Origin: Blepharisma japonicum | Lineage: Eukaryota; Ciliophora; Heterotrichea; Heterotrichida; Blepharismidae | NCBI GenBank assembly: GCA_949751835.1 | Contig: CATKHK010000187.1 | Location: 1-22,923, forward strand | Direction: 5' to 3' | Length of the DNA: 22,923 bases | In this document: positions 3,233 through 22,812 of the stretch, piece by piece | Layout of the letters: every line of letters starts with the position of its first letter | Position numbering within the stretch: the stretch's first letter is position 1 | Made by a program: the position numbers and the translations under genes | The notes under the pieces: model-generated | Databases searched by the model: none | Seen by the model: the letters and a program-made list of their open reading frames with translations, nothing else | What the model was told of the DNA's origin: nothing

Positions 3233-3819
3233 TTAGTGTAAACTTTTTAGAAAGATTTATTCGTTTCTTGCAGTTAATTTTACTTAGAGCTAAGCTAATA
3301 TTATAAGCAATAACCTTTCTTAATATGAATTTCTTAATAAATATTAAAATATGAATTTTTTGACTTTTTAGCAAAACAAAGTAATTTAATTACTCGACCC
3401 CTGTGCCAACCTGCATAGGCCGATTATAGATGATTTTTATAAAAAAATATATTTATTTTAAGATAATTCTATTATAATCATAGATTTTATCTTAAAATTA
3501 CTATGACCAAACTTTGAAACTCATTTTGATAATTCTCATTTCTCTAATGAAATCCTAAAATTAGCTATATATAAGCATATCTGCTGAAAATTAACCATTT
3601 TCTGATTAAAAATGTTTTGATAATATACTAGGAAATTCTCCACAAATTTTATTTTATTTCTAATCGTCCATAAGCTTGCAATTATTAACTGGCCTAAAAA
3701 TGGAATAACTTTAAATTCTCATATAAATAAAAAATCTAATCAAGCTTTATCTAAACCAATATCTTCTCAATAAAATTCTTTATCCTAACTAGATATTGTT
3801 TCATTTTCTTATAAAAATA
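3233..3819. other. Intergenic region upstream of the receptor gene
   Basis: About 590 bp of AT-rich DNA without a gene. It contains one small island of higher GC near 3398-3425 and a long imperfect palindrome at 3455-3498. The 5' region of the receptor gene must lie at its right end, but no promoter motif can be pointed to. Confidence 0.5.
3455..3498. repeat. Inverted repeat with 18-19-bp arms
   Basis: The left arm ATTTTAAGATAATTCTAT (3455-3472) pairs with the right arm at 3480-3498 around a 7-nt loop, with one bulge and one mismatch. The stem is almost entirely A/T. It lies in the middle of the intergenic region upstream of the receptor gene. It could be a hairpin, a mini-transposon core or a chance AT palindrome. 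Confidence 0.45.
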
Positions 3820-6800
3820 ATGAGAACCAAAGCGCTAATGCTCATTTTTGTGAGTTTAAATTTCTTACTATGCCAAGCTCACGACTTCATTTTTATATAC
3901 GAATCGAACGAATCCTCAGAATCAAAATTATATGGAAATATCTTTTACGAGCATTACAAATCAAGAATATTTTTTTTACGCGGAAACGAAATTCAACTAC
4001 TTTTCCAAGAGCTTATACTATTAGGCCATGACATCATGCTTTTTGACTTGACAGAAAATTCAGCTACACATTACGAAATCTCAAAATTTGCTTGAGAAAA
4101 TCAAATTTTGCATTTTATCACTGAAGATTTATCAGGCTACTATTATGATTGGACATTTGGCTTAAAAATTGCCAGAAAATCATATGGAAAGTCCATAAAT
4201 TCTATATTAGAATATTATAATTGAAAGAATGGGACAGTTTTTGTAAGTTTTGATAATAGGGTGTTTATGGAAGAAGTCGAGCTGGACAAAACAACGTATT
4301 TAATAATAGAGGATAATACAAATATGGAAAATTTAATAAATAGCATTGTATTTCCTTTAGGATCAAAATATTATTATATTTTCACGGGCGAAAATATAGG
4401 AATCAAGATTGTCGAATTATTAGATTCGAAAAATCTTTTAGGAAATGATAGCATGATATTTTTAGATGAATCCTCTGGAAAGCAAGTAAAATACAAAGGT
4501 TCTTTAGTATTATATGAAACTAAGCTCGATAGTGATATAAACTGCACCGTTCTTGAATTAATTTTTAACTTTTTAAATCGAACAATTGAAAAACTCGACA
4601 CATTTGATGACAATATTGAATCAAAAGAATACCTTCAAAACATTTGCTATAAAAATTATTGCACCGATACATTAAAACTTATAAATTTAGTAGATTCGAG
4701 AAATCAAGTTGGGTATGTGAAAAACGAGAATTATTATCCAGTATCAAGCATAACATACCCTGGAGGACTATTAACACCTCCTATAAATAAGAAAAAAGTC
4801 ATTGAGTTTAGTGTTAATAGTGGAACTTATAATTTAGATGAAAATCCCGCTAGAGACAACGGCGAGTACAACCGTGGGACTTTTATAGCAGTCGACGAAA
4901 TTAACGCCAGTCATGAAATTCTTAAAAATTTTTATCTTCAAGTAAACCCATTTGACTGTGGAGTCGACGTTTTTGATGAAAACTATTCTTTATCTTGTTA
5001 TGGATCACAGCTAAATAGGTTAGGAGTATCATTCATCCCTCCTTACGTGTCTGACACAACTGCAAAGCTAGTAAAAGACACTTTCGTTGATTTAAACATC
5101 ACAATTCCTGTAATTTCTGCTGCAGCTTCAGATGACACATTATCATCAATTACAGATTTTCCAAAATTTGCTAGAGTTTGCATATCAAATCATGATCTAG
5201 CAGTTCGGGCTGCTGGAGTTTTAAAGGTGTTAGGGTGGGAGAAATGCGCAATTTTGTATCAAAATGATACATTTGGCAATAATTGGTATAGTAGCTTTGT
5301 GGCTGGGGCAAAGCTACAAAACCTAAAAATTATGAACGATAAGCATTTAAGGTCATTACCTGCAGGCTACGATAGCCTTGAGACTTACAAATACGTCTTA
5401 GAAGAAGTAATTACTTCAAATGCCAGACTAATAGTATTAGTATTAGAAGCTCATCTAAGTATTGAAGTAATCACTATGTTCTATTCTATGGGAATGCGCA
5501 AAGGCGATCTTCTCTTTTATTTTGCTATGGACGACGTTATGACCAGCCTTTATTCTACTCATTATAGCAATTTCACAATAAGGATCGAACTGGGGGTTCC
5601 TGCAGTTAGAATGCATCAAGAAGAATACATAGGCACAACCGGAGACTGAGTGGAAGAAAAAATAATAAGCTTGTATGGCGGAAAACCTCGGCTCAGCAAT
5701 TATTTAGCCTGCAATTTTTATGATGCAGTGACTCTTATAGCTCAAGCTTTAGACTGGATGGTAAATAATGGCTTAAACTATAAAGACCCAGACGCGCTTA
5801 TGAAAATCATAAGATTTGTGTCATTTATAGGGTGCTCAGGATCTGTAAAAATCAATGAAGGGACTAATGATAGACTTACCCATTCGATGGTTTTCCAAAG
5901 CTCAATGATTGATACTGATACAGGGAATATCACAATTTATGACTCAATTATATATTCACCTTGAAGTGCTAATATGATAACTACTGTTAAGCCACTTTTG
6001 TATGCTGATAATACAACTGTGAAGCCATCTGATGAAAGAGTAGTTATAGGGAATTGCCCATTCCCAAGCTCTAAGGTAAGAACTTTTGTGAAAGGAAGAA
6101 TTTTAGTATTTATCCTGTGCTTTTTTATTGCGTTTGTAACAGCAATTTTAACTTTTATTATATGAAAAAAATGATGGCATATTAAGATTGAAATGCTGAC
6201 TACAAAAAAAGAAATTTCTTATGAGGATTTTATTGTTGGAATCACAATTTTGATAGAGTTTTTTCAAATTATTTCGATGGGGCCTGATGTAAAAGCAATC
6301 AGTTCTCTAGTGGGGCATATTGGGGATGGGTTTTCTTTGAATTTAGATAGTATTTATCATATGAAAGGTAATATTTTTTGGGTCTTAATTATTTGTACAT
6401 ATGGCTTAACTCTTTTATGGCTAATCCTCTGTGGCGTTGTACTTCTTCAACTTGATGTGGTCTTGCCTAAGTGGCCTCTCTTTAAGCTGCTTGTCCAATT
6501 TTCTGAAAGTATGATGCCAATCCTAGGAAATTTATTATTTATCCCTATAATTTCTATTTTATTAGACGTCTTTGTATGTGACGAATCCATTGGTGAAAAT
6601 TTCTCTGACAGTTTTCTATGAAAAGATTGTACACAATTTTGCTGAAATGGAATGCATATTACATTTGCAGTCTTATCAGGAGTTGCTATATTGATATATC
6701 ATCCTTTAGCTGTATTTTGTAGACCACTGTGGCAAGAGCTTCAGCCAATGCTTCATGTAAAAACGTCGCCTTTGCATTTAATGGTAAAAACCGTGTTTGA

Positions 6801-7359
6801 AATATGACTTATTGTTTTTAACAAAACAATTAAAAGGGCAAGCTCAAGTATTCATGGGCTTTTATTTATAGGACTGATTGCAATATATATAATTTTTATT
6901 TATATCCATAAGCCTTATAATTATCATAGGTTCAGCTTATGGCTTGGAATAAGCTTGGTTGGAGTTATGTGAATTTCAGGCTTATCGACCGTTAATTTGC
7001 TTTTGGATAATATTTCTTATTTTATTTGGACACCTCTATTATTTTCTGGATGAACATGTTTAATCGCCTTTGGATATATCTTACAAAAGAAATTTCCTTG
7101 CATGCTGACAAAAAGACCATCAAAAGATACTAAATTATTGTTTAAATTTGCGTTTACTTTTGGGAAAGCCTCAAATTTAATTGCTAAATCTGATCTGTTT
7201 CCACATAAAAAGAAGGAGCAAGAAGACGCTAAAGTTTACCCAGAGCCTGAAGATGAAGAAATAATAGCTAGTATTTCAGCCAATCCAAACACTTTGAATG
7301 TTCCAAATCCAAATATTTTAAATGTTCCAAAGGATAGGATAAATAAATTTAATCCATAA
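3820..7359 (+). CDS. Receptor-like multi-pass membrane protein with tandem ANF/PBP1-type ligand-binding domains (1179 aa)
   Basis: One frame runs from ATG 3820 to TAA 7357-7359, with about eleven in-frame TGA codons read as Trp. Residues 1-20 (MRTKALMLIFVSLNFLLCQA) are a signal peptide. Residues ~21-320 look like a degenerate type-1 periplasmic-binding-protein fold, with KYYYIFTGENIGIKIVELLD and a MIFLDE strand. Residues ~325-715 are a clearer ANF-receptor-type domain, containing GTFIAVDEINASHEI, the ISAAASDDTLS strand, LGWEKCAILYQNDTFG and YDAVTLIAQALDWM. Hydrophobic segments follow near 759-781, 802-824, 852-877, 886-917, 947-967, 1011-1030, 1041-1060 and 1066-1087, so seven to nine membrane passes. 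The cytoplasmic tail is charged and repeats NPN-x-LNVP twice. Related ciliate receptors exist, but ligand and effector are unknown. It resembles family C GPCRs in layout, though the membrane half lacks motifs I can assign to 7tm_3. Confidence 0.85.
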
Positions 7360-7448
7360 ATAAATATAAATAACTTATTGTAAATTTTCTCAATATTTTT
7401 GCCCTAAATTTATTCATTAAATTGATCTCTATCAGCTAAATATGAAAA

Positions 7449-8329
7449 ATGAGTGTGCTTCTTAAAAAGATTGAAGGAGAAGCTCAAATGGAAAGCAAAA
7501 GTTTGTTTCTTTTCCAAGGATTTGATATGTCCCAATATATAAAAACTAATCTAGAAACTTTTGTTTCTTCAAAGTATCAGTATAAAGTATCAGAAAAATT
7601 TAAATCTCCACCCTGCATATGTTCTCTTCCTAATGATGAGCTGTTTTGCTATGGATTTCAATTGGGTGCTTTTGGATTTTCTGGGTCAGCACTTATACTA
7701 AACTCATATAATAGAATAAAGAACTTACCTCCTGGAATTCCTTGTATTGAAGCAACAGCAATTTATTATAAAAATGCAGCTTATATATTCGGAGGAAGTC
7801 GCCATGGATTTGATTTATGTCCTTTTCCTTTAAACAGAGCCAGAAAGTTTGATTTTTTGCTAAATAAATGAATTAATTTAGCAAATTTACCTGAGCCTTC
7901 TCTTTTTTTGTTTTGTACAGAATTTTTTGGTGAAATTTTGATTGCAGAGTATGAAATAAATAAAATTTATTCTTAGCCATTTTATAGTAAAAAATCTTGC
8001 TCAATTGTGGGATTTATGATATTTTTTCAAATATTTATAGCGAAATACCTTTGGAACTAGCTGAGCAATCAGCTAAAATATTATTTAGATATGAAGATAG
8101 GGCTTATTTAATTGACAGTAAAAGAATGATAAATGAAAGTGGAATAAAAGATGCTTTCACATGAGAAAATATAGGCCAAATTAATCGAATTGCTGGGTTT
8201 AAAATATATCATTGAGTTTATTATAGTGGATCCATTTATTTTGGGATTGGGAAATCGGTTTATAAATTTTTTATGAATAAAAAGGCTGCAGAAATTGAAA
8301 GAGTAATAACTAAATGCAATTTTAGATAA
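7449..8329 (+). CDS. Kelch-like protein interrupted by a 47-bp insertion (277 aa if the insertion is absent)
   Basis: The 5' part starts MSVLLKKIEGEAQ and contains ICSLPNDELFCYG, AIYYKNAAYIFGG and NKWINLANLP, then stops at an in-frame TAG (7974). The 3' part is in another frame. It carries SEIPLELAEQSAKILF, RAYLIDSKRMINESG, FTWENIG and VYKFF, and ends at TAA 8327-8329. Both parts match the local Kelch family in order. Leaving out the 47 nt between two ATTTAT copies joins the frames across NKIY and DIFSNIYSE, the exact equivalent of NKIFAYDIASNSYSE in the gene at 1225. The resulting length, 277 aa, is typical for the family. The break may be an unexcised germline-type element or a disabling insertion. 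TGA codons on conserved Trp positions include those in NKWIN and FTWEN. Confidence 0.7.
7965..8017 (+). mobile_element. 47-bp insertion flanked by ATTTAT direct repeats (candidate IES-like element)
   Basis: ATTTAT occurs at 7965-7970 and 8012-8017, and each copy contains a TA dinucleotide. The 47 nt between equivalent points contain in-frame stops, lack any 15-16-nt GT..AG intron, and break the gene. Excision between the repeats restores the reading frame and the family motif. TA-bounded short elements are the known form of internal eliminated sequences in several ciliates, including Blepharisma. No clear terminal inverted repeat is visible. Confidence 0.5.
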
Positions 8330-8815: not shown

Positions 8816-8888
8816 ATATAATCATATTGAATAAAATTTTTGTATTATTTTAGCAACAATAATATATTTTTGTAGAGTCAAACTAAAA

Positions 8889-10316
8889 ATGGAGTTTATA
8901 TCAACTAGTGACTATATTGTGCAAGAGATCCTCTATAAAGCAGGCTCAATAGAACTCTTCACAGCAGTTTTAGCATCAGGCCAAGAATTTTTTGTAAAGA
9001 AGGTAAAATTTCTGTCGCCTGAGGGATTTAATGCGATAATTAGAGAAGGGAAAGCAATGGCTGCTCTTGAGCATCCAAATTTTGTAAAATTCTATGGTAT
9101 TTCGCAAGAAGAATCAGAACTTAATGATAGATTTATCCTTTTATTTATGGAATACCCCTCTCGAGGAGATTTGTCGAAAGAAATAAAAAGGAGAATAACT
9201 GACAATGAGTATTGGGCTGAACAGGAACTATGAGATTGCTTTAAATCGCTCATCAAAGCTTATTCGTTTTTGCAAAGACAAAGAATAGCCCATAGAAATA
9301 TAAAACCCCAAAATATTTTTGTGGGAGATGATGGAACTTTAAAAGTAGGTAATTTTGGATGTTTTTTGCAAAGTGAAGATCAGGAAAGGACAATACTATC
9401 AGATCATACGATTACAGGGACACCATTATACTTGAGCCCTAAATTAAGAGAAGCATATAAGAATTTAAAATCAGGAATAAGTGATAATAGAGCATACCAT
9501 GATCCTTTTAAATCTGATGTTTATTCACTGGGATTGACATTTCTTTATATGGCAAGCTTGAAAGATTTAACTGACTTGACGGATTTAAATACGCTAAATT
9601 ACAAAAAAGCACAAAGAATTAATGAGTTAAGATATTCTCAAAGTATAAAAGACTTTTTAAGCTATATGCTTGAAAATGATGAGGCAAAAAGGCCTAGTTT
9701 TATAAAACTTGAAGAAATTTTAACAAATTCCATTGAAGGAAATATGCAAGTTCAGCCAAAATTTAATGCATGTAAAATAAAAGCAACTCAAATATCAGAT
9801 TTTTGCATGCTGCAAGGTTTCTACTCAATTAAAGTAAATATTAAAGCTTCATATATAAATCCATACTTTTCATACATTTTACAGGTCATCAGAAATGATG
9901 CAAATAGTTACTATGTATGGGCTCTTATAACATTTGCGAAATCTATGAACTGTAATATCAGAATTGGCACTCTTACCTATAAATGTTATATTTGTAGAAC
10001 TGGAAACATTAATTTTTTGTATATGTGCAATTGTGGAGCTAAATATTTTATTCATCAAGAGTGCTGAAATAGTGGATTTAATTGTCCTTATTGCTACCAG
10101 TCTTGTGCATTATATAATGAAAGCACCAGCCCGCAGCAAGATCAAATAGAAGAAATGAAAGAAAATAGCGATATTAAAATTAAAATAAAACCCCGTAAAT
10201 GCTTTCAATGCAAAAAACAAAAAAATGGATTTACTTATCATCAAGGCCATCGAATTTGTGAAGATTGCTCAAAATATAATGAATCTTACCTATGGAATAG
10301 TTGCATTTTAATTTAA
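8889..10316 (+). CDS. Pseudokinase with C-terminal RING-like and second zinc finger (475 aa)
   Basis: The protein-kinase fold covers residues ~10-280. It has a degenerate glycine loop (LYKAGSIELFTAV), the beta-3 lysine in FVKKVKF (K37), the helix-C glutamate in REGKAMAALEHPN (E53), the hinge LLFMEYPSRGDL and GTPLYLSP in the activation segment. The catalytic HRD is HRN (135-137) and DFG is NFG (155-157), so both catalytic aspartates are missing; phosphotransfer is unlikely. Near residue 366 a CxxC..CxC..HxxC..CxxC array (YKCYIC to CPYC) resembles a RING finger. A second Cys/His cluster follows (KCFQCKK to CEDCSKYN). TGA at 9231 and 10065 is read as Trp. The next gene is a tandem duplicate 32 nt downstream. 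A scaffold or ubiquitin-ligase-like role is inferred. Confidence 0.85.
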
Positions 10317-10348
10317 TTCATTAAATATTTATAGACTTGAAACTAAAA

Positions 10349-11563
10349 ATGGGCTCTATATCAATTAGTGACTATACTAAGCAAGAGACTCTCTATAAAG
10401 AAGGTTCAGTCGAAATTTTCAAAGCAGTTATAAAAACGACAGGCCAAGAAATTGTCATAAAAAAGGTAAAAATTCTATCATCTGAGGAATTGAATGAGAT
10501 ACATAGAGAAGGGTTGATGATGGCAACACTTGAGCATCCTAATTTTGTAAAATTCTATGGTATTTCGCAAGAAGAATCAGGATCTAATAGATTTGTCCTT
10601 TTATTTATGGAATACTTCCCTCGAGGAGATTTGTCAAAAGAAATAAAAAGAAGAATAACTGATAATGAATATTGGGCTGAAGAGGATCTATGAGATTGTT
10701 TTAAATCGCTCACCCAAGCTTATTCATTTTTGCAAAGACAAAGAATAGCCCATAGAAATATAAAGCCCGAAAATATTTTTGTGGGAAATGATGGAACTTT
10801 AAAAGTGTCTGGCTTCCAATGTGCTTTGCAGATAGAAGAGCAGGAAACGAAAACGGCATCAAAATATACAATTGAAGGGACACCACTCTACTTTAGCCCT
10901 AAATTAAGAGAAGCATATATGAATTTTAATTGAGGATTAAGTGATAATTATTGTGTAAAGCATGACCCTTTTAAATCTGATGTGTATTCACTGGGATTGA
11001 TTTTTCTTTATATGGCAAGTTTAAAAGAGTTAGTTGACTTAACAGATTTAAATACCTTTAATTACAAAAAAGCACAAAGAGAAAATGATTTAAGATACTC
11101 TCAAAGGGTAAAGAGCCTTTTAAGATGTATGCTTCGATATAATGAAGCAAAAAGGCCTAACTTTATAAAACTTGAAGAAGTTTTTACAAATAATGCTGAT
11201 GGAAATATACAAGTTCAGCCAAAACTTAACACCGTTAAAATAAAAGCAACGCAAATATCAGATTATCGCATGCTGCAAGATTTCCACTCAATTAAAGTAC
11301 TTTTTAAAACTTCATATATAAATCCATACATTTCATACATTTTACAAGTTATCAAAAATGATGTAAACAGTTACTATGTATGGGCTCTTATAACATTTGC
11401 GAAATCTGTGAACTTTGACATCAAAATTGGCACTCTTACCTATAAGTGTTTAATTTGTAGCACTGGAGACATTAATTTTTTGTTTTCGTGCAATTGTGGA
11501 GCTAAATATTTTATTCATCAAGAGTGCTGAAATCAAAAATTTATTTGCCCTTATTGTTGCTAG
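10349..11563 (+). CDS. Pseudokinase with RING-like finger, C-terminally truncated paralogue (404 aa)
   Basis: It is a tandem duplicate of the preceding gene, sharing MGSISISDY, EHPNFVKFYGISQEES, KRRITDNEYWAE and most of the C-terminal half. The start ATG has the same AAACTAAAA leader as the upstream copy. The beta-3 lysine (VIKKVKI) and helix-C Glu are kept. HRD is HRN at 135-137 and DFG is GFQ at 155-157, more eroded than in its sister. The RING-like Cys/His array is complete up to CPYCC. It then ends at TAG 11561-11563, where the sister gene has CAG (Gln); residual homologous codons continue past the stop. The second zinc cluster is therefore lost. TGA at 10691, 10931 and 11528 is read as Trp. 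Confidence 0.85.
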
Positions 11564-12645: not shown

Positions 12646-12707
12646 TATTTAATGTATTTTTATAATGAATATAAAAAGTGAGCCTTATAGATAATAATTA
12701 TAATTGA

Positions 12708-13032
12708 ATTGAAGAAATTATTATGAAATACTTGCGCTTGTTCTTTCAACAGTTTTGTATTAAATTTCACAATTGCATCATTGATGTTAAAATACTAGGA
12801 GTTCTTATAAATACTTAAGGGAAAATGGTATTATTAAAAGGTGTACAATAACCTATAATGTTTCATACATAAAAATTATTTTTTTCGCTTTTTCATATTA
12901 ATTTAGAAAAATCAATTAAATAAGCAACATTTCCAGATCTGCAAAGCACTTTTGCAATATCTTGACTGAGATCTAAAGAGCAAGAAGAAAAAGAGCAAGT
13001 ACACAAATCATATAAAAATATATATAGAAATT
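12708..13032 (-). pseudogene. Relic of a Kelch-like gene (C-terminal third)
   Basis: This minus-strand stretch aligns closely with the C-terminal third and 3' flank of the gene at 17753-18571, from the CSFSSC segment to its stop and on into the downstream spacer (down to about 12666). Small indels break the frame several times, including a lost base near the fragment matching KNSWYFNI. Homology ends abruptly near 13032. It is a partial, decayed duplicate placed just upstream of the start of the gene at 11806-12645. Confidence 0.75.
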
Positions 13033-13288
13033 TATAAGTAAAAGCAAGCTATTTGTAAAGAGATCCAAAAGCATGATTTTGAAAGATGGGCATTTTTGAC
13101 ATTATGGATACTGAATTAGACAATATTACTAAAACTTTAATACTACCAATAAGTTATATTAAAAGTTTTAAGGCTCATACTTTAATATTTTATTTTTTTC
13201 ATAAACAACAAGAGAACTTCGAAACTTTTGGTCAAATTAAAAATATTAACAAAGAATACTATGCAAGATGCATCCATATAGCATGTAA

Positions 13289-14732
13289 TTAAATATTATT
13301 AAAGTGTGTATTTGGGCAATTATAAATTTCAATTGGAAATGGTTTTCTACATTCTATGCATACTACTTCTTTCAAATCAAAACACGCACTAATACTCAAT
13401 GAACAGTTGACATAGTTTAAAAAATTCATCTTTGCAATATTTATATCCACAATCATGGGTAAGCTCATCACTATTACATAATTCACAACTATTAATACTC
13501 CTAAATCCATTATTTTCATCACTGTCAAATTCTTCCTCTAATATTGTATTTTTTTCATATTGTTTAACTTCTTCCTGATGATTTGCAGAAATAGTCTCAC
13601 CTTGTTTAATTTCTTCCTGAGTATTTGTAGAAATCGTCAGACCTTGCTTAATTTCTTCCTGAAATTTTACTGAATCACTTTGCATATAATATCTTTTATC
13701 AGATGAATGGGGATTATAAAAGTCTCCAATAAGACCATTTTTATTACTGTTAAATCCCTGAAAAAGAAATATACTTTCTGCATTCCCCCCTTTAAATCAG
13801 AAATCGGTGGAGTTGGTACCTAGACGAGTTGTATCATGTGGATCAGATGTTTCGATTTCTTGCCCTATTTTTTGTAATAACTCCAAGACCTTTCCGATTT
13901 TAGGCCTATTTTTATAGTCATCAGCGAGCATTCATTTTAATAAAAGTATCAAATTTGCGGGTCGATTTCTCAATTTATTATCAACTATTTCGAAAATTTC
14001 ATTTTCTGAAGCAGGAAAATTTGCATAAAGATCTAATGCAGCCATCTCATAAAAAGTTTTCCCAACTGACCATACTTCTTCTTCTTTAAGCCTATTTTCT
14101 TCAGATCTCTTCTTTCCGTCAGCTTTATCAACAGGAAGACTTTTTCGGTGTTCTAAATAGCTTGGCGACATGTAAATTTCTGTTCCGTTTGCTGTATATT
14201 TTGACTCTCCAATTCTAATTTCTTTTGATTCACCAAAGTCTCCAATTCTAAGTACTTCATGATTTTTAACAAAAATATTGTCAGGCTTCATATCTCTATG
14301 GATGTAGTTATTGCTGTGCAAAATTTCTATTACTCCTGCAATAGTAATAAAATGATTTATCAGCTCTGAGTCAGTCCATGGTGTATTTTCATTCTTTCTT
14401 CTTTCAATCACTTTTGAGACACTGCCACAGTCACAGTATTCCATAAAAATCCTAAATGTTCCATCAAATTCTGTATGGTAATAATGCTTTACAATGTTTG
14501 GGTGAAGTGCTGACAAGTCCTCCAAAAATTTCGCTTCTTTTTTATATTTTGTGAGAACTTTATAAAATGGTTTTAAAATTGCAAATTTTGGGAAATCTCG
14601 AGGACGTTCTTGAAAAGTAAATTTAACAACTTTCAATGTTTTTTGGATTGATTTGTCATGAGAATCTAAAATATTGAATTGCTGATAATATGCAGATTTA
14701 AAATCTTCTTCGCTATGATTGCTTCTCATCAT
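13289..14732 (-). CDS. Ser/Thr-type protein kinase with C-terminal zinc finger; one 16-nt intron (475 aa)
   Basis: The minus-strand ATG is at 14732 (a second Met follows directly). The kinase domain covers residues ~45-290: beta-3 lysine in FAILKPF (K54), KKEAKFLEDL with the helix-C Glu, hinge FMEYCDCGSVS, intact HRDMKPDN (145-152), intact DFG (165-167), GTEIYMSP and EEEVWSVGKTFYEM. The glycine loop is not recognisable. TGA codons follow LLLK and STDF and are read as Trp. Then comes a 14-residue repeat (QEEIKQGLTISTNT, QEEIKQGETISANH, and a partial third). From C416 a zinc-finger-like Cys/His array begins (CELC, HDC, YC). It continues after a 16-nt intron into CQLACFDLKEVVCIEC and NCPN, ending at TAA 13289-13291. 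Exon length is divisible by three only with the intron removed. Probably an active kinase; substrate unknown. Confidence 0.85.
13389..13404 (-). other. 16-nt spliceosomal intron
   Basis: On the minus strand GTTCATTGAGTATTAG starts with GT and ends with TAG. Its removal bypasses an in-frame TAG and shifts into the frame that carries the remaining zinc-finger cysteines (VVCIECRKPF). Neighbouring GT..AG pairs near this length give the wrong phase. Introns of 15-16 nt are characteristic of heterotrich ciliates. Confidence 0.65.
13560..13672 (-). repeat. 42-nt coding repeat in the kinase linker
   Basis: Two full and one partial copies of a 42-nt unit encode QEEIKQ followed by eight variable residues, in the linker between kinase domain and zinc finger. 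Copies differ at several bases, so the expansion is not very recent. The unit is polar and may form a short helix. Confidence 0.7.
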
Positions 14733-15044
14733 TCTACAAAATAAATATGAATTTTGATTATAAATGATGTGAATTTATATAAAATTATAAAAATTATAAT
14801 TTATTTAGGCATTGTATTCCATTGCGCCATAGAATATAGATTGGTCAAAAGCTAGAAATTTCTTTTAATTGAGAATTTTAAGACAATTTTTTAGAAAAGT
14901 AGTGATATATATTGATTCAGCTGAAACTATTTTTTTGCCTCTATTTTTTATAATTTGCAGCCTATTATTTAATTACTAGCTGTTCTGTTTTAGCTTCTTG
15001 AGTTCCTAAATACCTAATTATACAATAAAAACTGCTAATTGAAA
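14733..15044. other. Divergent intergenic region
   Basis: Lies between the kinase start (minus) and duplicated block A (plus). It is AT-rich, with no coding sequence, tRNA-like structure or strong repeat recognised. The kinase promoter must lie here, but no motif stands out. Confidence 0.5.
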
Positions 15045-15300
15045 AAATTATTAATCCTGAAGAGACCTCGAGGAAGCAGCTTGCATATGATATTTGTCAG
15101 ATAATAAATATTTTGTTGTTGAAGTTTTGAATGAGAGCATTGATAATATTTATTTTATAATCGATGATGACTATTCTACCTACATTTTCCCTTCAGAAGA
15201 CATATATATAGGATATTCTGTAGCTTATTATAATAATTGTGTCTATATTTGTGGAAATGCAAATGCTGCTAGATTTAATTTAGTTAAGTATATTTTAATA
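15045..15300 (+). pseudogene. Relic of an MKIL-type Kelch-like gene (copy A)
   Basis: The DNA follows the middle of the gene at 16840-17631. The correct frame gives RDLEEAACIWYLSDNK, parallel to RDLDEASCMCFLPDNK, and after shifts IYFIIDDDYS, YYNNCVYICGNANAARF. It lacks both ends and has at least two frameshifts. It also lacks one A present in copy B (near 15110). The 74-codon frame at 15094-15318 is a by-product of this decay. Confidence 0.7.
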
Positions 15301-15335
15301 CATCATTTAAACAAATAATCATAAACTTAATATTA

Positions 15336-16276
15336 ATGGAAACCTTCTTCTCAACAGAAAGTAAACAACCTTGAAAGCTGCCTCTACGATCTCATCAAAA
15401 AAATGATATCCGAACATCCAAATTTAAGTGATTTAGCGATGATTTTCCAGCTTTCTACGAATATGATTTTAAAACTTCAAAAGAAGCTTATTATCAGCAC
15501 AATCTTTCAAATACCTTCGCTTGTCAGATTAGATGCATGTGCCCTTTACCTGATAAAACACTTTTTGGCTACTCAAATTGGAGTGATTGATCTGAAGAAG
15601 GTGGCACTCTTTTTATAATAGACGAATTAAATGATATTAAAATCATTCAAAATTATAGCTTCTCTATAAACAGCTTGTATAGCTGAAATCAAAAGGAAAT
15701 TCTTTTCATGGAAGACGAAAAAAATGTTCTGCAAACATTTTTTATAAGGTCAAATTATACAGACATTCCTGGAACTTATTATAACAATTTATTTATATAT
15801 CAATGAAAAATATAGTAGGATTTGATCTGGTTAATCAAAGATGACATACAATAGTGAAAACAAAAGAAGAGCAGTCCTGATGCACTTCTATATCATTTAA
15901 TAACTTGATTTTGGCTTTAGAATATGAAAGCGAAAATATCTATATTATAGATCTTTTAATTTTATCAATTTCGTCGTATTCTCTTCCAATTGCAAAGCGC
16001 AGTGTAAAACGCAGTGCAAAAATGCTTTTCAGCTTTGACAACGTAGTGTATTTGGTTGATTTTTTTGGGAAAATATTAGAAAGCTCTATAGATGACCCTT
16101 TTAATTGAAAAATTATAAAAGATTCTAAATTTATATGTGCTCATTTTCTGTATTCTTATAGTGCATTTTGTAATAATTGTTGATACATGATAATTGATGA
16201 TTTTCAGGTTTGTAGTTTTGACTTAAACCAAAAGAACCTTAAAAAGCTTGATTTGTCTCTTAAAAAAGGAGATTAA
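15336..16276 (+). pseudogene. Kelch-like protein, copy A, frameshifted
   Basis: It starts METFFSTESKQPWKLPLRS and follows the intact copy B gene (20063-20989) throughout. Blocks include CMCPLPDKTLFGYSNW, GTLFIIDE, the blade YYNN, a Trp-containing RWHTIV, NVVYLVDFFGKILESS and PFNW. A three-T run at 15788-15790 is one T shorter than in copy B. The frame is lost after GTYYNN and ends at TAG 15813-15815; the rest continues in another frame to TAA 16274-16276. It also has a 12-bp tandem duplication (KRSV inserted in IAKRSAKM, near 15992-16015). Either a recent pseudogene or a homopolymer read error. Many TGA codons fall on Trp positions shared with copy B. Confidence 0.75.
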
Positions 16277-16839
16277 ATTACTTAAAAAACATTAAAAAAC
16301 ATTAATTACAGACTAATAAATTATTCATCTCTTGGAAATTTTTAGCAAGAAAAGCAGATAGTTTAAGAGTCTGCTTATTTTGCAAACTTTGTTGAAAATT
16401 CTAGGAAAGGATATATTAATTTTAGACATAATTAATTATTTTAAATATAATAGAGTCTGCATATTTGTTCAGCTTCTTAATGAAATTAAGATAAATAATT
16501 ATATCAATTTTCAAGAGATTGGAATTGAAACTTTAAAGCTTATATAATATATTTCTGAATCATAAGAGTAGATTTTTGAAAATGTGCTTATGTTATATAG
16601 AACTAAAATGACGAGATCTGATCTAATTATCTCTTAAAACAGTTTATAGTTTGAATCCCTTCAATTTAAACCAGTTTAATTTTTTTCAGAAACAAATTAT
16701 CTAAAATTTTAAAAATAGCTAGCATAAATTTTATATAGATATATGAGTTTAATCCCTAGAGAATGAGCTAATGCTCTAGCTCAATTGTAGCTGAATTGAT
16801 GACTTTCAGATTATCTAGCTAATAAAAAGAATAATTAAT
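16277..16839. other. Conserved noncoding region upstream of the MKIL-type gene (copy A)
   Basis: About 560 bp without a convincing reading frame, yet almost identical in copy B (20990-21553) and recognisable in the third copy (22430-22812). It contains a 7-bp hairpin (AAGCAGA 16352-16358 with TCTGCTT 16370-16376), the string GAAAATTCTAG at 16394-16404, and an AATTAATATG start context shared by all three genes. It probably holds the promoter. No RNA gene was recognised. Confidence 0.5.
16352..16376 (+). repeat. Conserved hairpin upstream of MKIL-type gene (copy A)
   Basis: AAGCAGA pairs with TCTGCTT across an 11-nt loop containing AGTTTAAGA. Copy B (21067-21090) keeps the stem with one mismatch. 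The third copy (22470-22492) keeps six pairs although nearby bases diverged. Function unknown. Confidence 0.45.
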
Positions 16840-17631
16840 ATGAAAATTTTAGAAAATATAGCACCAATGAGTCAAGACACTGAAACTGAAACATCAAAAT
16901 TAATGTGATTTTCAGGCCAACCATATGATCTTCATGTATTTAATCTGGAATCCAGAAGTAAAACTACTCAGAATATTATTCTTGAAAGAGACCTTGATGA
17001 AGCATCTTGCATGTGCTTTTTGCCAGATAATAAAATGCTTTGTTGTGGAAGTTTTAAATGAAAAAAATTTTACAAAATTTATTTTATAATTGATAAAGAT
17101 TATTCTGTCAGAATCCTCCCTCCACTAGACATATATATGTGATGTTCTGCTACTTATTACAATAATTTTGCTTATATTTGTGGGGATGCAACTGTTGCTA
17201 GATTTGATTTAATTAATTGGAGATGAGAAAAACTAATAATGCTCAGTGTCTGATTATATTCGCATACTTCTATGCAATTCAACGAAATGATTTTAATTTC
17301 AGCACAATATTATAAGGGTATTTTTGTGCTAGATTTATTAACTTTGTCTTTTTCTTCATGCCAACTTGAATTTGAAATAACTAAAACAAGATTCCTTTGC
17401 AAATGGGAAAATTCTGCTTATTTGGTTGATTTTTCTGGAAAAATATATAAGAGTGATAATAGTAATCCTTTCAATTGGAATTTTATAGGAAATTGCAACC
17501 CTTTAGATTGTTGCATATATGGGCATAAAACTTTCTATAAGGATTCATTGTATTTTTATGGAGGCTCCTATATTTTTAAATTTGATCTGAACAAAATGAA
17601 ATTAGAAAAATTTGATTTGCCATTTTATTAG
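16840..17631 (+). CDS. Kelch-like protein, MKIL type, copy A (263 aa)
   Basis: An unbroken frame runs from ATG 16840 (MKILENIAPMSQDTETETSK) to TAG 17629-17631, with several TGA codons read as Trp. Blocks in order: CMCFLPDNKMLCCGSFKW, IYFIIDKDYSVRILPP, TYYNNFAYICGDATVARFDL, WRWEKL, ILISAQYYKGIFVLDL, CKWENSAYLVDFSGKIYKSD and YKDSLYFYGGSYIFKFDLNK. At the conserved PFNW site it uses TGG where most relatives use TGA, which supports the code assignment. It closely matches copy B at 21554 and the start of a third copy at 22813. No targeting signal is visible. Probable beta-propeller protein of unknown role, convergent with the gene at 17753. Confidence 0.88.
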
Positions 17632-17752
17632 TAAATCATAAAACTACATAAAAATCATAATAATTAATAATAATTATGTTACTATAAAGGAAAATATAAT
17701 AATAATCTTATAAAAAATATAAAAAATGAACCTTATAAATAATAATTATAAT

Positions 17753-18571
17753 TTAGTCGAAGGGATTATCATATGAAATACTTGCGTTTGTTCTTTCAAC
17801 AGATTTTGTATCCAAATTAAATTTCATAATTGCATTATCGATGTTAAAATACCAGGAGTTCTTATAAAATACTTTAATAGAAATAGTTGAATAATTAAAA
17901 AGTATACAAGAACCTATAAAGCTTCATGCATAAAAATTATTTTTGTCGCTTTCCAATATTAATCCAGAAAAATCAATTAAATAAGCCACATTTCCAGATC
18001 TGCAAAGCACTTTTGTGACATCTTGGCCCAGATTCAAAGAGCAAGAAGAAAAAGAGCAAGCCCGCAAATCAAATATAAATAGATATGTGGAATAATACCC
18101 TGTAATCAATATCACATTACTTAACGATATACAAGTGGACAAATTATTACAACCAGGCGTTTTTGTTAGCTTTTGCCACCTTTTTTTAGTCAAATTATAT
18201 CTCAAAATAGAATCATCTCCAAACATGTAAACAAAATTGTTGTAAAATGTTGCACAATATCCATGAGCAAATATTTTAGAAGGAAGAGCTTGAATATTAT
18301 GATCTTCGTCTATTATAAAAGCAATACCATATAGTTTGTATTTCCTTGTAGGACCTCGATAGCAAAAAAACTTGTTCCCAGGCAAAGAGCATATACAAGT
18401 AAACCAATAAATATGATCTTTAGGAGCTGAAATTTCAAGAGTATCTGTTTCCATAGTTTCAAGATTAACTTCTTCAAAATCATATGGATCACCTATGTAA
18501 GTCCAACAAAATTTTGATGTTTCGACTTCGATTTCTTGGCAATCTAACACCAGCTTTTCCAGAATTTTCAT
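17753..18571 (-). CDS. Kelch-like protein, MKIL type (272 aa)
   Basis: On the minus strand the frame runs from ATG 18571 (MKILEKLVLDCQEIEVETSK) to TAA 17753-17755, through a TGA at 17924 read as Trp that would otherwise cut off the last ~57 residues. Blocks: ISAPKDHIYWF, CICSLPGNKFFCY, AFIIDEDHNIQALP, GYCATFYNNFVYMFGDD, LTKKRWQKLTKTPG, CTCISLSNVI, CSFSSCSLNLGQDVTKVLC, VAYLIDFSGLILESD and KNSWYFNIDNAIMKFNLD. It is the closest intact relative of the gene at 11806-12645 and the parent type of the relic at 12708-13032. It lies between duplicated blocks A and B and is not itself repeated there. Beta-propeller fold likely; role unknown. Confidence 0.88.
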
Positions 18572-18591: not shown

Positions 18592-18872
18592 ATTATGATA
18601 TAATTTTTAAATTCTTATTTGAAGTTCCTTTAGAATTGGCTTCTAATATAAAAATTTGGCTTATTTATTCAAATTAAAGAATAATAAACAAAAGCGTAGT
18701 TAAAGATGCTTTTAATGAAAAATGTAGGCATGTTAATCGAATTTGTATGTTTAGAAATAGCTCATTGAGCTTATTATAGTAGATCAATTATTTTGATATT
18801 TGAAAATCAGTTTATGAAGAAAAACGGTGACAAATATCGAAAGAGTAATAATTAAATGAATTTTCTAATCTA
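18592..18872 (+). pseudogene. Relic of the Kelch-like gene at 7449 (C-terminal part)
   Basis: The DNA follows the last ~95 codons of the gene at 7449-8329: GAAGTTCCTTTAGAATTGGC matches its EIPLELA segment, then come GTTAATCGAATT, a CATTGAGCTTATTATAGT segment and AAAGAGTAATAATTAAATG near the end. Frameshifts and stops are numerous. Its left edge lies next to the point where the gene at 7449 carries the 47-bp insertion. Confidence 0.65.
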
Positions 18873-19769: not shown

Positions 19770-20025
19770 AAATTATTAATCCTGAAGAGACCTCGAGGAA
19801 GCAGCTTGCATATGATATTTGTCAGATAATAAAATATTTTGTTGTTGATGTTTTGAATGAGAGCATTGATAATATTTATTTTATAATCGATGATGACTAT
19901 TCTAACTGCATTTTCCCTTCAGAAGACATATATATAGGATATTCTGTAGCTTATTATAATAATTGTGTCTGTATTTGTGGAAATGCAAATGCTGCTAGAT
20001 TTTAATTTAGTTAAGTATATTTTAA
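19770..20025 (+). pseudogene. Relic of an MKIL-type Kelch-like gene (copy B)
   Basis: This is the same relic as at 15045-15300, with the missing A present. A frame from 19691 to 20005 runs across the block boundary into it, but in the wrong phase for the first part of the family sequence. I therefore treat that 104-codon frame as fortuitous. The visible family pieces are CIWYLSDNK in one frame and IYFIIDDDYS, YYNNCVCICGNANAARF in another. Confidence 0.7.
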
Positions 20026-20062
20026 TGGATCATTTAAACAAATAATCATAAACTTAATATTA

Positions 20063-20989
20063 ATGGAAGCCTTCTCAACAGAAAGTAAACAACCTTGAAA
20101 GCTGCCTCTACGATCTCATCAAAAAAATGATATCCGAACATCCAAACTTAAGTGATTTAGCGATGATTTTCCAGCTTTCTACGAGTATGATTTTAAAACT
20201 TCAAAAGAAGCTCATTATCAGCACAATCTTTCAAATACCTTTGCCTATCAGATTAGATGTATGTGCCCTTTACCTGATAATAAACTTTTTGGCTACTCAA
20301 ATTGGCGTGATTGATCTGAAGAAGGTGAAACTCTTTTTATAATAGATGAATCAAATAATATTCAAATCATTCAAAATTATAGCTTCTCTATAAACAGCTT
20401 GTATAGCTCATATCAAAAAAAAATTGTTTTCATGGAAGACGAAAAATATGTTCTGCAAACATTTCTTAGAGGGTCAATATATACAGACAGTCCTGGAACT
20501 TTTTATAACAATTTTATTTATATATCAATGAAAAATATAGTAGGATTTGATCTGGTTAATCAAAGATGACATACAATAGTGAAAAGAAAAGAAGAGCAGT
20601 CCTGATGCACTTCTATATCATTTAATAACTTGATTTTGGCTTTCGAGTATAAAAGCGAAAATATCTATATTGTAGATCTTTTAATTTCATCAATTTCGTC
20701 GTATTCTCTTCCAATTGCAAAACGCAGTGCTAAAATGCTTTTCAGCTTTGAAAACGTAGTGTATTTGGTTGATTTTTATGGGAAAATATTAGAAAGCTCT
20801 ATAGATGACGCTTTTAATTGAAAAATTATAAAAGATTTTAAATTTATAGGTGGGAATAGTCCGTATTCTTATAGTGCATTTTGTAATAATTGTTGATACA
20901 TGATATTTGATGATTTTCAGGTTTTTAGTTTTGACTTAAACCAAAAGAACGTTAAAAAGCTTGATTTGTCTCTTAAAGGAGGAGATTAA
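20063..20989 (+). CDS. Kelch-like protein, copy B, intact (308 aa)
   Basis: The start is MEAFSTESKQPWKLPLRSHQ and the stop TAA 20987-20989. The frame is unbroken with TGA as Trp (for example KQPW, NQRW, EEQSW, AFNW, NNCW). Blocks: CMCPLPDNKLFGYSNW, TLFIIDESNNIQII, GTFYNNFIYISMKNIVGFDLV, NQRWHTIVK, CTSISFNNLILAFEY, IYIVDLLISSISSYSLP, NVVYLVDFYGKILESS, CNNCWYMIFDDFQVFSFDLNQK. It is longer at the N-terminus than the MKIL type and forms its own subgroup with the frameshifted copy A. It is preceded by the Kelch relic. Two GG-free blades make the Kelch assignment rest on similarity within the array. Role unknown. Confidence 0.85.
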
Positions 20990-21553
20990 ATTGCTTAAAA
21001 AACATTAATAAAAAATCAAATTACAGACTAATAAATTATTCATCTCTTGGGAATTTTTAGCAACAAAAGCAGATAGTTTAAGATCTGCCTATTTTGCAAA
21101 CTTTGTTGAAAATTCTAGGAAAGGATATATTAATTTTAACCATAATGAATTATTTTAAATACAATAGAGTCTGCATATTTGTTCAGCTTCTTAATGAAAT
21201 TAAGATAAATAATTATATCAATTTTCGAGAGATTAAAATTGAAACTTTAAAGTTTATATAATATATTCCTGAATCATAAGAGTAGATTTTTGAACATGTG
21301 CTTATGCTATGTAGAACTAAAATGATGAGATCTGATCTAATTATCTCTTAAAGCAGTTTATAGTTTGAATCCCTTCAATTTAAACCAGTTTAATTTTTTT
21401 CAGAAACAAATTATCTAAAATTTTAAAAATAGCTAGCATAAATTTTATATAGATATATAAGCTTAATCCCTAGAGAATGAGCTAATACTCCAGCTCAATT
21501 GTAGCTGAATTGATGACTTTCGGATTGTCTAGCTAATAAAAAGAATAATTAAT
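20990..21553. other. Conserved noncoding region upstream of the MKIL-type gene (copy B)
   Basis: Counterpart of 16277-16839 with very few changes, including the hairpin (21067-21090) and GAAAATTCTAG at 21108-21118. No reading frame of note. Probably contains the promoter of the gene at 21554. Confidence 0.5.
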
Positions 21554-22345
21554 ATGAAAATTTTAGAAAATCTGTTGCCAATGAGCCAAGACACTGAAAC
21601 TGAAACATCAAAATTAATGTGATTTTCAGGCCAACCATGTGATCTCCATGTATTTAATCTGGAATCCTGAAGTAAAACTACTCAGAATATTATTCTTGAA
21701 AGAGACCTTGATGAAGCATCTTGCATGTGCTTTTTGCCAGATAATAAAATGCTTTGTTGTGGAAGTATTAAATGAAAAAAATTTTACAAAATTTATTTTA
21801 TAATCGATAAAGATTATTCTGTCAGAATCCTCCCTTCATTAGACATATATATGTGATGTTCTGCTACTTATTACAATAATTTTGCTTATATTTGTGGAGA
21901 TGCAACTGTTGCTAGATTTGATTTAATTAATTGGAGATGAGAAAAACTAACAATGCTCAATGTCTGATTATATTCACATACTTCTATGCAATTCAACGAA
22001 ATGATTTTAATTTCAGCACAATATTATAAGGATATTTTTGTGCTAGATTTATTAACTTTGTCTTTATCTTCATGCCAACTTGAACTTGAAACAACTAAAG
22101 CAAGATTCCTTTACAAATGGGAAAATTCTGCTTATTTGGTTGATTTTTCTGGGAAAATATATAAGAGTGATAATAGTAGTCCTTTCAATTGGAATTTTAT
22201 AGGAAATTGTAACTCTTTAGATCTTTGCATATATGGGCATAAAGCTTTCTATAAGGATTCATTGTATTTTTATGGAGGCTCCTATATTTTTAAATTTGAT
22301 CTGAACAAAATGAAATTAGAAAAAATTGATTTACCATTTTATTAG
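21554..22345 (+). CDS. Kelch-like protein, MKIL type, copy B (263 aa)
   Basis: It has the same length and block order as the gene at 16840-17631, starting MKILENLLPMSQDTETETSK and ending DLPFY with TAG 22343-22345. Differences are mostly conservative substitutions. One codon is TGA (Trp) where copy A has AGA (Arg), in ESRS versus ESWS. The PFNW site again uses TGG. The intact frame in both copies, despite silent and replacement changes, suggests both are functional. A third copy starts 467 bp downstream. Confidence 0.88.
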
Positions 22346-22812
22346 TAAATCATAGAACTACATAAAATCATAATAATGAATAATAATTAATTCAAAGTAA
22401 AAAATTTAATAAAATTCCCAATTATAATCTATTAAATTATTCATGTCTTGGAAAATTTTTAGCAAAGTTAGCAGAGAGTTTAAGAATCTGCTTAATTTAC
22501 AAAATTGAATATTCAAGAGAGGGTATATTAATTTTAACCTTAATTGAATTATTTTAAATAAAGCATATTTTACTACTTCTTAATGAAATTAAATAAATAA
22601 GAGGCAAATAATTATCAGATTTCTGAAAAATAAGAGTAGATTTTTGAATATGTACTTATGTTATACAGAACTAAAATGACAAGATCTCATCTAATCATCT
22701 CTTAAAACTGTTATCTTTTGTAGCTTGAAGATACTTAGCTAAAGCTCCAGTTCCATTTTTAGCTGAATTGATAGCTCTAGGATTATTTAGTTAATCAAAA
22801 AGAATAATTAAT
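22346..22812. other. Noncoding region upstream of the third MKIL-type gene
   Basis: After ~85 bp of unrelated AT-rich DNA, the sequence from about 22430 follows the conserved upstream region of copies A and B. It is more diverged and shortened by several deletions. The hairpin (22470-22492) and the AATTAATATG start context are kept. The other Kelch-like gene of the block is missing here. Confidence 0.5.

What the first reader, a model, noticed from the sequence alone, without database searches (positions are those of the whole stretch)
7965..8017. 47-bp insertion between ATTTAT repeats breaks a Kelch-like gene; precise removal restores frame and motif
Seen: two ATTTAT copies 47 bp apart, in-frame stops between them, and family-conforming coding sequence in different frames on each side. 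Joining at the repeat gives NKIY-DIFSNIYSE, matching NKIFAYDIASNSYSE in a paralogue, and a total length divisible by three. Known: ciliate internal eliminated sequences are often short and TA-bounded. Inference: this is an IES retained in this molecule, or the window is germline DNA.
Basis: partly seen in the sequence, partly recalled or inferred. Interest (0 to 1): 0.72.

Follow-up and report, generated by a model that had tools for sequence, protein, structure and literature searches.

The report
Short TA-bounded insert breaks Kelch gene
In a ciliate genome of Blepharisma type, one copy of a large Kelch gene family is cut in two by a unique 41-base insert, which may be a leftover piece of germline-only DNA that should have been removed or may be an ordinary gene-breaking mutation.

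Summary
Two ATTTAT copies lie 47 bp apart, with stops between them and Kelch coding sequence in different frames on each side. Relatives from the same genome put the extra DNA at 41 bp: 27 of 38 give 41, none 47, and the 41-bp join scores best against 59 of 60. It runs TA to TA (7974 to 8015) and gives NKIYSYDIFSNIYSE, the length of the paralogue motif. Code, telomere repeat and PiggyBac homologues fit a Blepharisma-type heterotrich. Known intron types and a single-base error do not fit. The contig looks somatic: 11 uninterrupted ORFs (13.7 kb) where germline DNA would carry about 13 IESs. So if the insert is an IES, it was retained, whole or in part. TA ends at this spacing arise by chance in about 5-14% of cases, 41 bp is below the 65-bp first length peak of B. 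stoltei IESs, and the array holds other damaged copies. An ordinary pseudogene insertion is nearly as likely; reads are needed to choose.

The parts
7449..7973 (+). 5' part of the interrupted Kelch-like gene, from ATG to the last sense codon (...NKIYS) before TAG 7974 (UGA=Trp)
   Evidence: 150 own-genome matches listed for 7440-7973, itself included; Pfam Kelch_6 E 5.5e-4, below its cut-off
7974..8014 (+). best-supported extent of the insert: 41 bp, TA-bounded, direct repeat TTA (7973-7975 / 8014-8016); begins as a stop codon (TAG), 29% GC
   Evidence: interior 39-mer 7976-8014 found once in 45.2 Mb at up to 3 mismatches
8015..8326 (+). 3' part of the interrupted gene (YDIFSNIYSE...), sense codons up to the stop that follows 8326
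   Evidence: of 38 paralogue matches of the right piece, 32 start at residue 8 or 9 of the piece
18594..18864 (+). decayed copy of the 3' part only; homology starts at or within a few bases of TATGATAT, which corresponds to 8015
   Evidence: BLASTN 75% over 8089-8323; segment 8015-8090 aligns better than any of 2000 shuffles, insert and left flank do not

Best explanation
The 41-bp segment 7974-8014 is germline-type DNA (an internal eliminated sequence, or the residue of a longer one) that stayed in the somatic (macronuclear) copy of one Kelch-like gene in a Blepharisma-type heterotrich. In normal development a domesticated PiggyBac excisase would cut at the flanking TAs and leave one TA, restoring ...NKIYSYDIF.... 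Here excision failed, was too inefficient for so short a segment, or used a TA inside a longer IES and left 41 bp behind. Shown: a unique 41-bp insertion relative to the family, TA/TTA repeat at its ends, in-frame stop, length not a multiple of three, somatic character of the contig, PiggyBac homologues in the genome. Inferred: germline origin, the excisase, and the failure of excision.
For: Family spacing and join scores define a clean 41-bp insertion with TA at both ends. In a screen of 57 records (56 loci and the window, 218 kb) it is the only insertion-type break supported by more than 4 query matches (25). Its interior has no second copy in the assembly at up to 3 mismatches and no other exact match longer than 12 nt in the output printed for the held loci, as expected of short IESs, described as largely nonrepetitive (PMC9942856, abstract). 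UGA=Trp frames, telomere repeat CCCTAACA (168 matches) and 12 PiggyBac-domain matches on 6 contigs fit B. stoltei as described in PMC9942806 (passages). No further stop lies in the 278 codons of the two halves, as expected of a gene intact until recently or restored by removal. About three quarters of B. stoltei IESs are TA-bound and about 70% lie inside genes (PMC9942856, Results part 1 of 3).
Against: 41 bp lies below the first B. stoltei length peak (65 bp; [quoted passage not shown] Residual IES retention in macronuclear DNA was at most 0.02 there (passage). TA at both ends is expected by chance in about 5-14% of cases, by criterion. No terminal inverted repeat is evident (both strands printed, compared by eye). 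No empty-site copy at up to 3 mismatches exists in the assembly, and no reads were available. Other damaged Kelch copies lie on the same contig. The TA repeat that is statistically the rarer one (ATTTAT, 47 bp) is not the one the family supports.
Confidence: 0.48

Rival explanations
1. Ordinary pseudogene: a 41-bp insertion mutation, or the scar of a transposon or repair event, in one member of a large and expendable tandem family. No programmed removal takes place.
For: The contig is a Kelch/kinase array with damaged copies: 353-1048 lacks its N-terminal part, 12818-13048 and 18594-18864 are fragments, and 15288-16273 has a one-base frameshift against its 94.6% duplicate. A Kelch copy in L003 has many stops. 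A TTA repeat could be a 3-bp target duplication.
Against: A unique, non-duplicated 41-bp filler is an uncommon mutation (general knowledge), and the screen found no other well-supported case in 218 kb of the family's loci. No second stop in 278 codons: under assumed rates, neutral drift of 5% would give about 1.2 stops and 3.3 frameshifts. So the gene would have to be very recently dead.
Confidence: 0.42
2. Unremoved spliceosomal intron, spliced from the mRNA.
For: The insert is in a coding region, is not a multiple of three and contains stops.
Against: B. stoltei introns are predominantly 15 and 16 bp (PMC9942806, passage). No GT..AG pair of 13-19 nt lies in 7931-8060. All 7 GT..AG removals of 10-159 nt found to restore the frame are 92-158 nt long and delete the conserved YDIFSN segment.
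Confidence: 0.02
3. Assembly or sequencing artefact (a chimera, or a germline read built into the consensus).
For: One-base frame breaks elsewhere in the family may be sequencing errors. The contig is small and no telomere repeat was seen at its ends.
Against: A 41-base error is unlike homopolymer errors, and the inserted letters occur nowhere else in the assembly at up to 3 mismatches.
Confidence: 0.05
4. Translational bypassing: ribosomes hop from a take-off TAT codon (7968) to a landing TAT codon (8015) over 47 nt.
For: The ATTTAT copies put matching in-frame TAT codons 47 nt apart. Known in principle from phage T4 gene 60 (recalled, no call).
Against: The product would be 2 residues shorter than nearly all relatives compared. 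No such case is known to me in ciliate nuclear genes (recalled, not searched).
Confidence: 0.01

Closest known systems
Internal eliminated sequences of Blepharisma stoltei (PMC9942856)
   Same: TA-containing terminal direct repeat, AT-rich, single-copy sequence, inside a gene
   Different: 41 bp is shorter than the 65-bp first peak and in the range under 50 bp that was filtered in that catalogue; the insert lies in a somatic-type contig; no germline evidence
TA-indels of Paramecium macronuclear DNA, residual and partial IES excision (PMC3464196, passages)
   Same: a short TA-bounded extra segment in a somatic gene; 134 of 689 residual indels with a known IES were shorter than that IES, and most of these were ascribed to an alternative boundary inside it
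   Different: there they are minor forms found in reads; here the insert is the assembled form; different class of ciliate
IES recruited into an exon in Paramecium (6 cases, PMC3464196, passages)
   Same: DNA once removed becomes permanent somatic sequence
   Different: here it breaks the frame and is not a usable exon
Tandem-family pseudogenes
   Same: damaged copies of the same family lie on the same contig
   Different: this copy has a single clean insertion and no other stop

Membership tests
Blepharisma-type IES | bounded by a direct repeat containing TA, one copy left after removal | tested here: met
   TTA at 7973-7975 and 8014-8016 for 41 bp; ATTTAT for 47 bp; chance about 5-14% for 41 bp
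Blepharisma-type IES | precise removal restores the coding sequence | tested here: met
   41-bp join: open frame, best against 59 of 60 paralogue ORFs
Blepharisma-type IES | present in germline DNA and absent from most somatic DNA | not testable with these tools
   no reads or germline assembly; no empty-site copy in the assembly at up to 3 mismatches
Blepharisma-type IES | length in the known range (65 bp and up, ~10-bp periodic to 115 bp, longer beyond) | tested here: not met
   41 or 47 bp; the published set filtered predictions under 50 bp, so the lower range was not fully surveyed
Blepharisma-type IES | host has PiggyBac-type transposase homologues | tested here: met
   12 DDE_Tnp_1_7 matches on 6 contigs, 0 of 14 control genomes; activity and catalytic residues not tested
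Germline (micronuclear) contig | about one IES per kb throughout | tested here: not met
   11 uninterrupted ORFs, 13,683 bp of 22,923; about 13 IESs expected in them
Spliceosomal intron of heterotrichs | 15-16 nt, GT..AG | tested here: not met
   none of 13-19 nt at 7931-8060
Kelch-repeat family | Kelch repeats similar to family members | tested here: met
   Pfam Kelch_6 in the left piece only below the curated cut-off, no Pfam hit in the right piece

The most novel reading that the evidence does not exclude
Blepharisma-type heterotrichs carry a class of IESs shorter than 50 bp, or leave TA-bounded residues of longer IESs in the soma. These fall under the length filter of the published catalogue, and some sit too far below the excisase's length limit to be removed, so that they silence family members in the macronucleus. 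The decayed copy at 18594, whose homology starts at or near the same TA, would be a product of excision with an alternative upstream boundary.
Probability: 0.15. Interest if true: 0.55.

Novelty: new member of a known kind. Interest (0 to 1): 0.3.

Why it matters
If it is a retained or partly excised IES, it gives one concrete somatic gene with which to test the lower length limit of excision in an early-branching ciliate class, in a size range that the published survey filtered (under 50 bp). If it is a pseudogene, it is ordinary family turnover.

Tried and rejected
The 47-bp ATTTAT junction was set aside as second best: it wins against 1 of 60 paralogue ORFs. Of the 20 best of 61 spanning paralogues printed, L047 is 2 residues and L039 net 1 residue shorter near this place, as the 47-bp join would need. 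A 65-bp TA junction (7950/8015), attractive because 65 bp is the first B. stoltei peak, was rejected because it wins against 0 of 60 and would remove the family-like NKIYS. GT..AG introns and tiny introns were rejected; a single-base error was rejected by argument: the left frame stops at 7974 while the right frame is open only from 7991, so one shift cannot join them (the third frame is open there, so two shifts could). A germline window was rejected. A second copy of the insert, or an empty site, in the assembly was sought and not found. Scans of viral contigs (1 pattern match) and genome contigs (29 pattern matches) confirmed no relative. The search for further insertion breaks in the held loci gave, besides the window site: single-query cases; L060 with 4 queries (450 nt, at the C-terminus); and the window at 15683-15698 with 3 queries (53 nt), where the intact duplicate 20015-20986 carries extra residues in frame and the copy has a one-base loss. 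A 137-nt single-query case in L003 proved to be a copy with many stops. Whether 5'-truncated copies start at this site in general was checked in 93 regions: 4 truncated regions were listed and no common start was seen, but the two decayed fragments of the window were not among the 4, so the check is insensitive to such fragments. The structure job for a window paralogue had not finished and was not used.

Rows dropped: L001, L002, L005, L006 and L032 (they overlap the window); L001 and L032. Of 98 paralogue ORFs (220 aa or more) 65 matched and 60 spanned the site with all three joins. Loci overlap one another in part, so the 60 are not all independent.

Full report
What the sequence shows. With UGA read as tryptophan, a Kelch-like frame runs from ATG 7449 to TAG 7974, and a second frame, shifted by 2 mod 3, carries the 3' part to 8326. 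The two ATTTAT copies at 7965 and 8012 are real. The left frame stops at 7974 and the right frame only opens at 7991, behind TAG-TAA, so no single-base change can join them. The third frame is open in between.

Extent of the insert. The own genome (45.2 Mb, 224 contigs) holds a large Kelch family: 134, 150 and 149 matches were listed in three searches, lower bounds by the tool's own note. In a comparison with paralogue ORFs from the held loci, matches of the left piece end at its last two residues in 39 of 65, and those of the right piece start at residues 8-9 in 32 of 38. The implied inserted length is 41 nt in 27 of 38 paralogues, 38 in 4, 44 in 2, 35 in 1, larger outliers in 4, and 47 in none. 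A separate chaining of translated matches gave 41 nt for 22 and 38 nt for 3 of 25 query matches. Joining at the TAs 41 bp apart scores best against 59 of 60 spanning paralogue ORFs (mean 97.9 bits), the 47-bp join in 1 (92.3), the 65-bp join in 0 (89.0). The 41-bp join gives NKIYSYDIFSNIYSE, the length of NKIFAYDIASNSYSE in the window paralogue at 1750. In 61 spanning paralogues x-K-I-Y-x-Y-D-I is the commonest pattern, column by column, at this place.

How unusual the ends are. A TA-containing direct repeat at offset 41 occurs within 9 nt at 8.9% of random window positions (4.7% for 3 nt or more), and within 15 nt at 14.3% (7.4%). The longer ATTTAT repeat is rarer (0.4% for offset 47, 2.9% over five allowed offsets, within 15 nt), but the family does not support its 47-bp spacing. 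The ends therefore add little to the case.

What the genome is. UGA-as-Trp frames, telomeric CCCTAACA arrays (77 + 91 overlapping exact matches to three repeats; the part listed lies on 13 contigs, at bases 2-421 on the + strand or at high coordinates on the - strand) and 12 PiggyBac-domain matches on 6 contigs (0 of 14 control genomes) match what PMC9942806 reports for B. stoltei (passages seen: UGA=Trp, CCCTAACA, eight PiggyBac homologues, predominantly 15-16 bp introns, 41-Mb somatic genome). This assembly is 45.2 Mb and may be another strain or species; no call names it. The window is the whole of contig C187 (22,923 bp); no telomere repeat is seen in the 300 bases printed at each end. Eleven uninterrupted ORFs (13,683 bp, picked for length; damaged copies and intergenic DNA not counted) would hold about 13 IESs in germline DNA at 39,799 per 41 Mb (figures from PMC9942856, Results part 1 of 3). 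This points to somatic sequence.

What the insert may be. It is found once in the assembly at up to 3 mismatches, and the short matches printed elsewhere in the held loci reach 12 nt at most. The intron models tested do not fit. A retained IES, or the residue of a longer one, fits the TA ends, uniqueness, in-frame stop, non-multiple-of-three length and otherwise open gene. In Paramecium, 134 of 689 residual TA-indels with a known IES were shorter than it, most ascribed to an alternative internal boundary (PMC3464196, passages); that would explain a length below the 65-bp B. stoltei peak. The B. [quoted passage not shown] On the other side, residual retention in macronuclear DNA was at most 0.02 there, and the array holds damaged copies that need no special mechanism. 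A recent ordinary insertion is nearly as likely.

A loose end. A decayed copy at 18594-18864 resembles only the part of the gene right of the insert. The segment 8015-8090, cut at 8015 for the test, scores above all of 2000 simple shuffles, while the insert and the left flank show no similarity to the stretch before it (p 0.96 and 0.47). The freer alignment runs on through a few matching letters inside the insert end, so the start is known to within a few bases only. A second fragment near 13.0 kb loses strong similarity about 12-15 nt before the equivalent place, read by eye. A wider check found no general rule but was insensitive to such fragments. This may be chance.

Verdict. Real insertion, corrected to 41 bp; somatic-type contig; IES origin plausible but unproven. 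Papers: PMC9942856 (abstract, Results part 1 of 3, Methods sections 23 and 24, passages), PMC9942806 (passages), PMC3464196 (passages). Four literature searches were made; no claim is made that sub-50-bp heterotrich IESs are absent from print.

Noticed in passing
15045-17676 and 19770-22389: Segmental duplication, 94.6% identical, carrying Kelch genes; the first copy has a one-base frameshift near 15788 and a 12-bp in-frame extra stretch at 15994-16005, the largest indel between the aligned copies
   Followed up: partly
18594-18864: Decayed copy of only the 3' part of the interrupted gene, starting at or within a few bases of the position that corresponds to the right TA of the insert
   Followed up: partly
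12660-13048 (-): Kelch gene fragment, 84% identical over 12660-13025 to 17708-18086, lacking the 5' part
   Followed up: partly
353-1048: Kelch copy without a recognisable N-terminal part near the contig start
   Followed up: no
3793-7356: 1188-residue uninterrupted frame with a receptor ligand-binding domain (ANF_receptor, E 1.1e-25), next to protein kinases at 8835-10313, 10325-11560 and 13392-14774 (-)
   Followed up: no
L046, L049 and L054 (loci of the own genome): Single-base-type frame breaks in Kelch relatives, supported by 3, 6 and 44 query matches; either sequencing errors or recent pseudogenes
   Followed up: no
own genome, contigs C112, C5, C214, C9: PiggyBac-domain matches that are split or contain several TAA/TAG stops, beside three long frames on C6 and C86
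   Followed up: no
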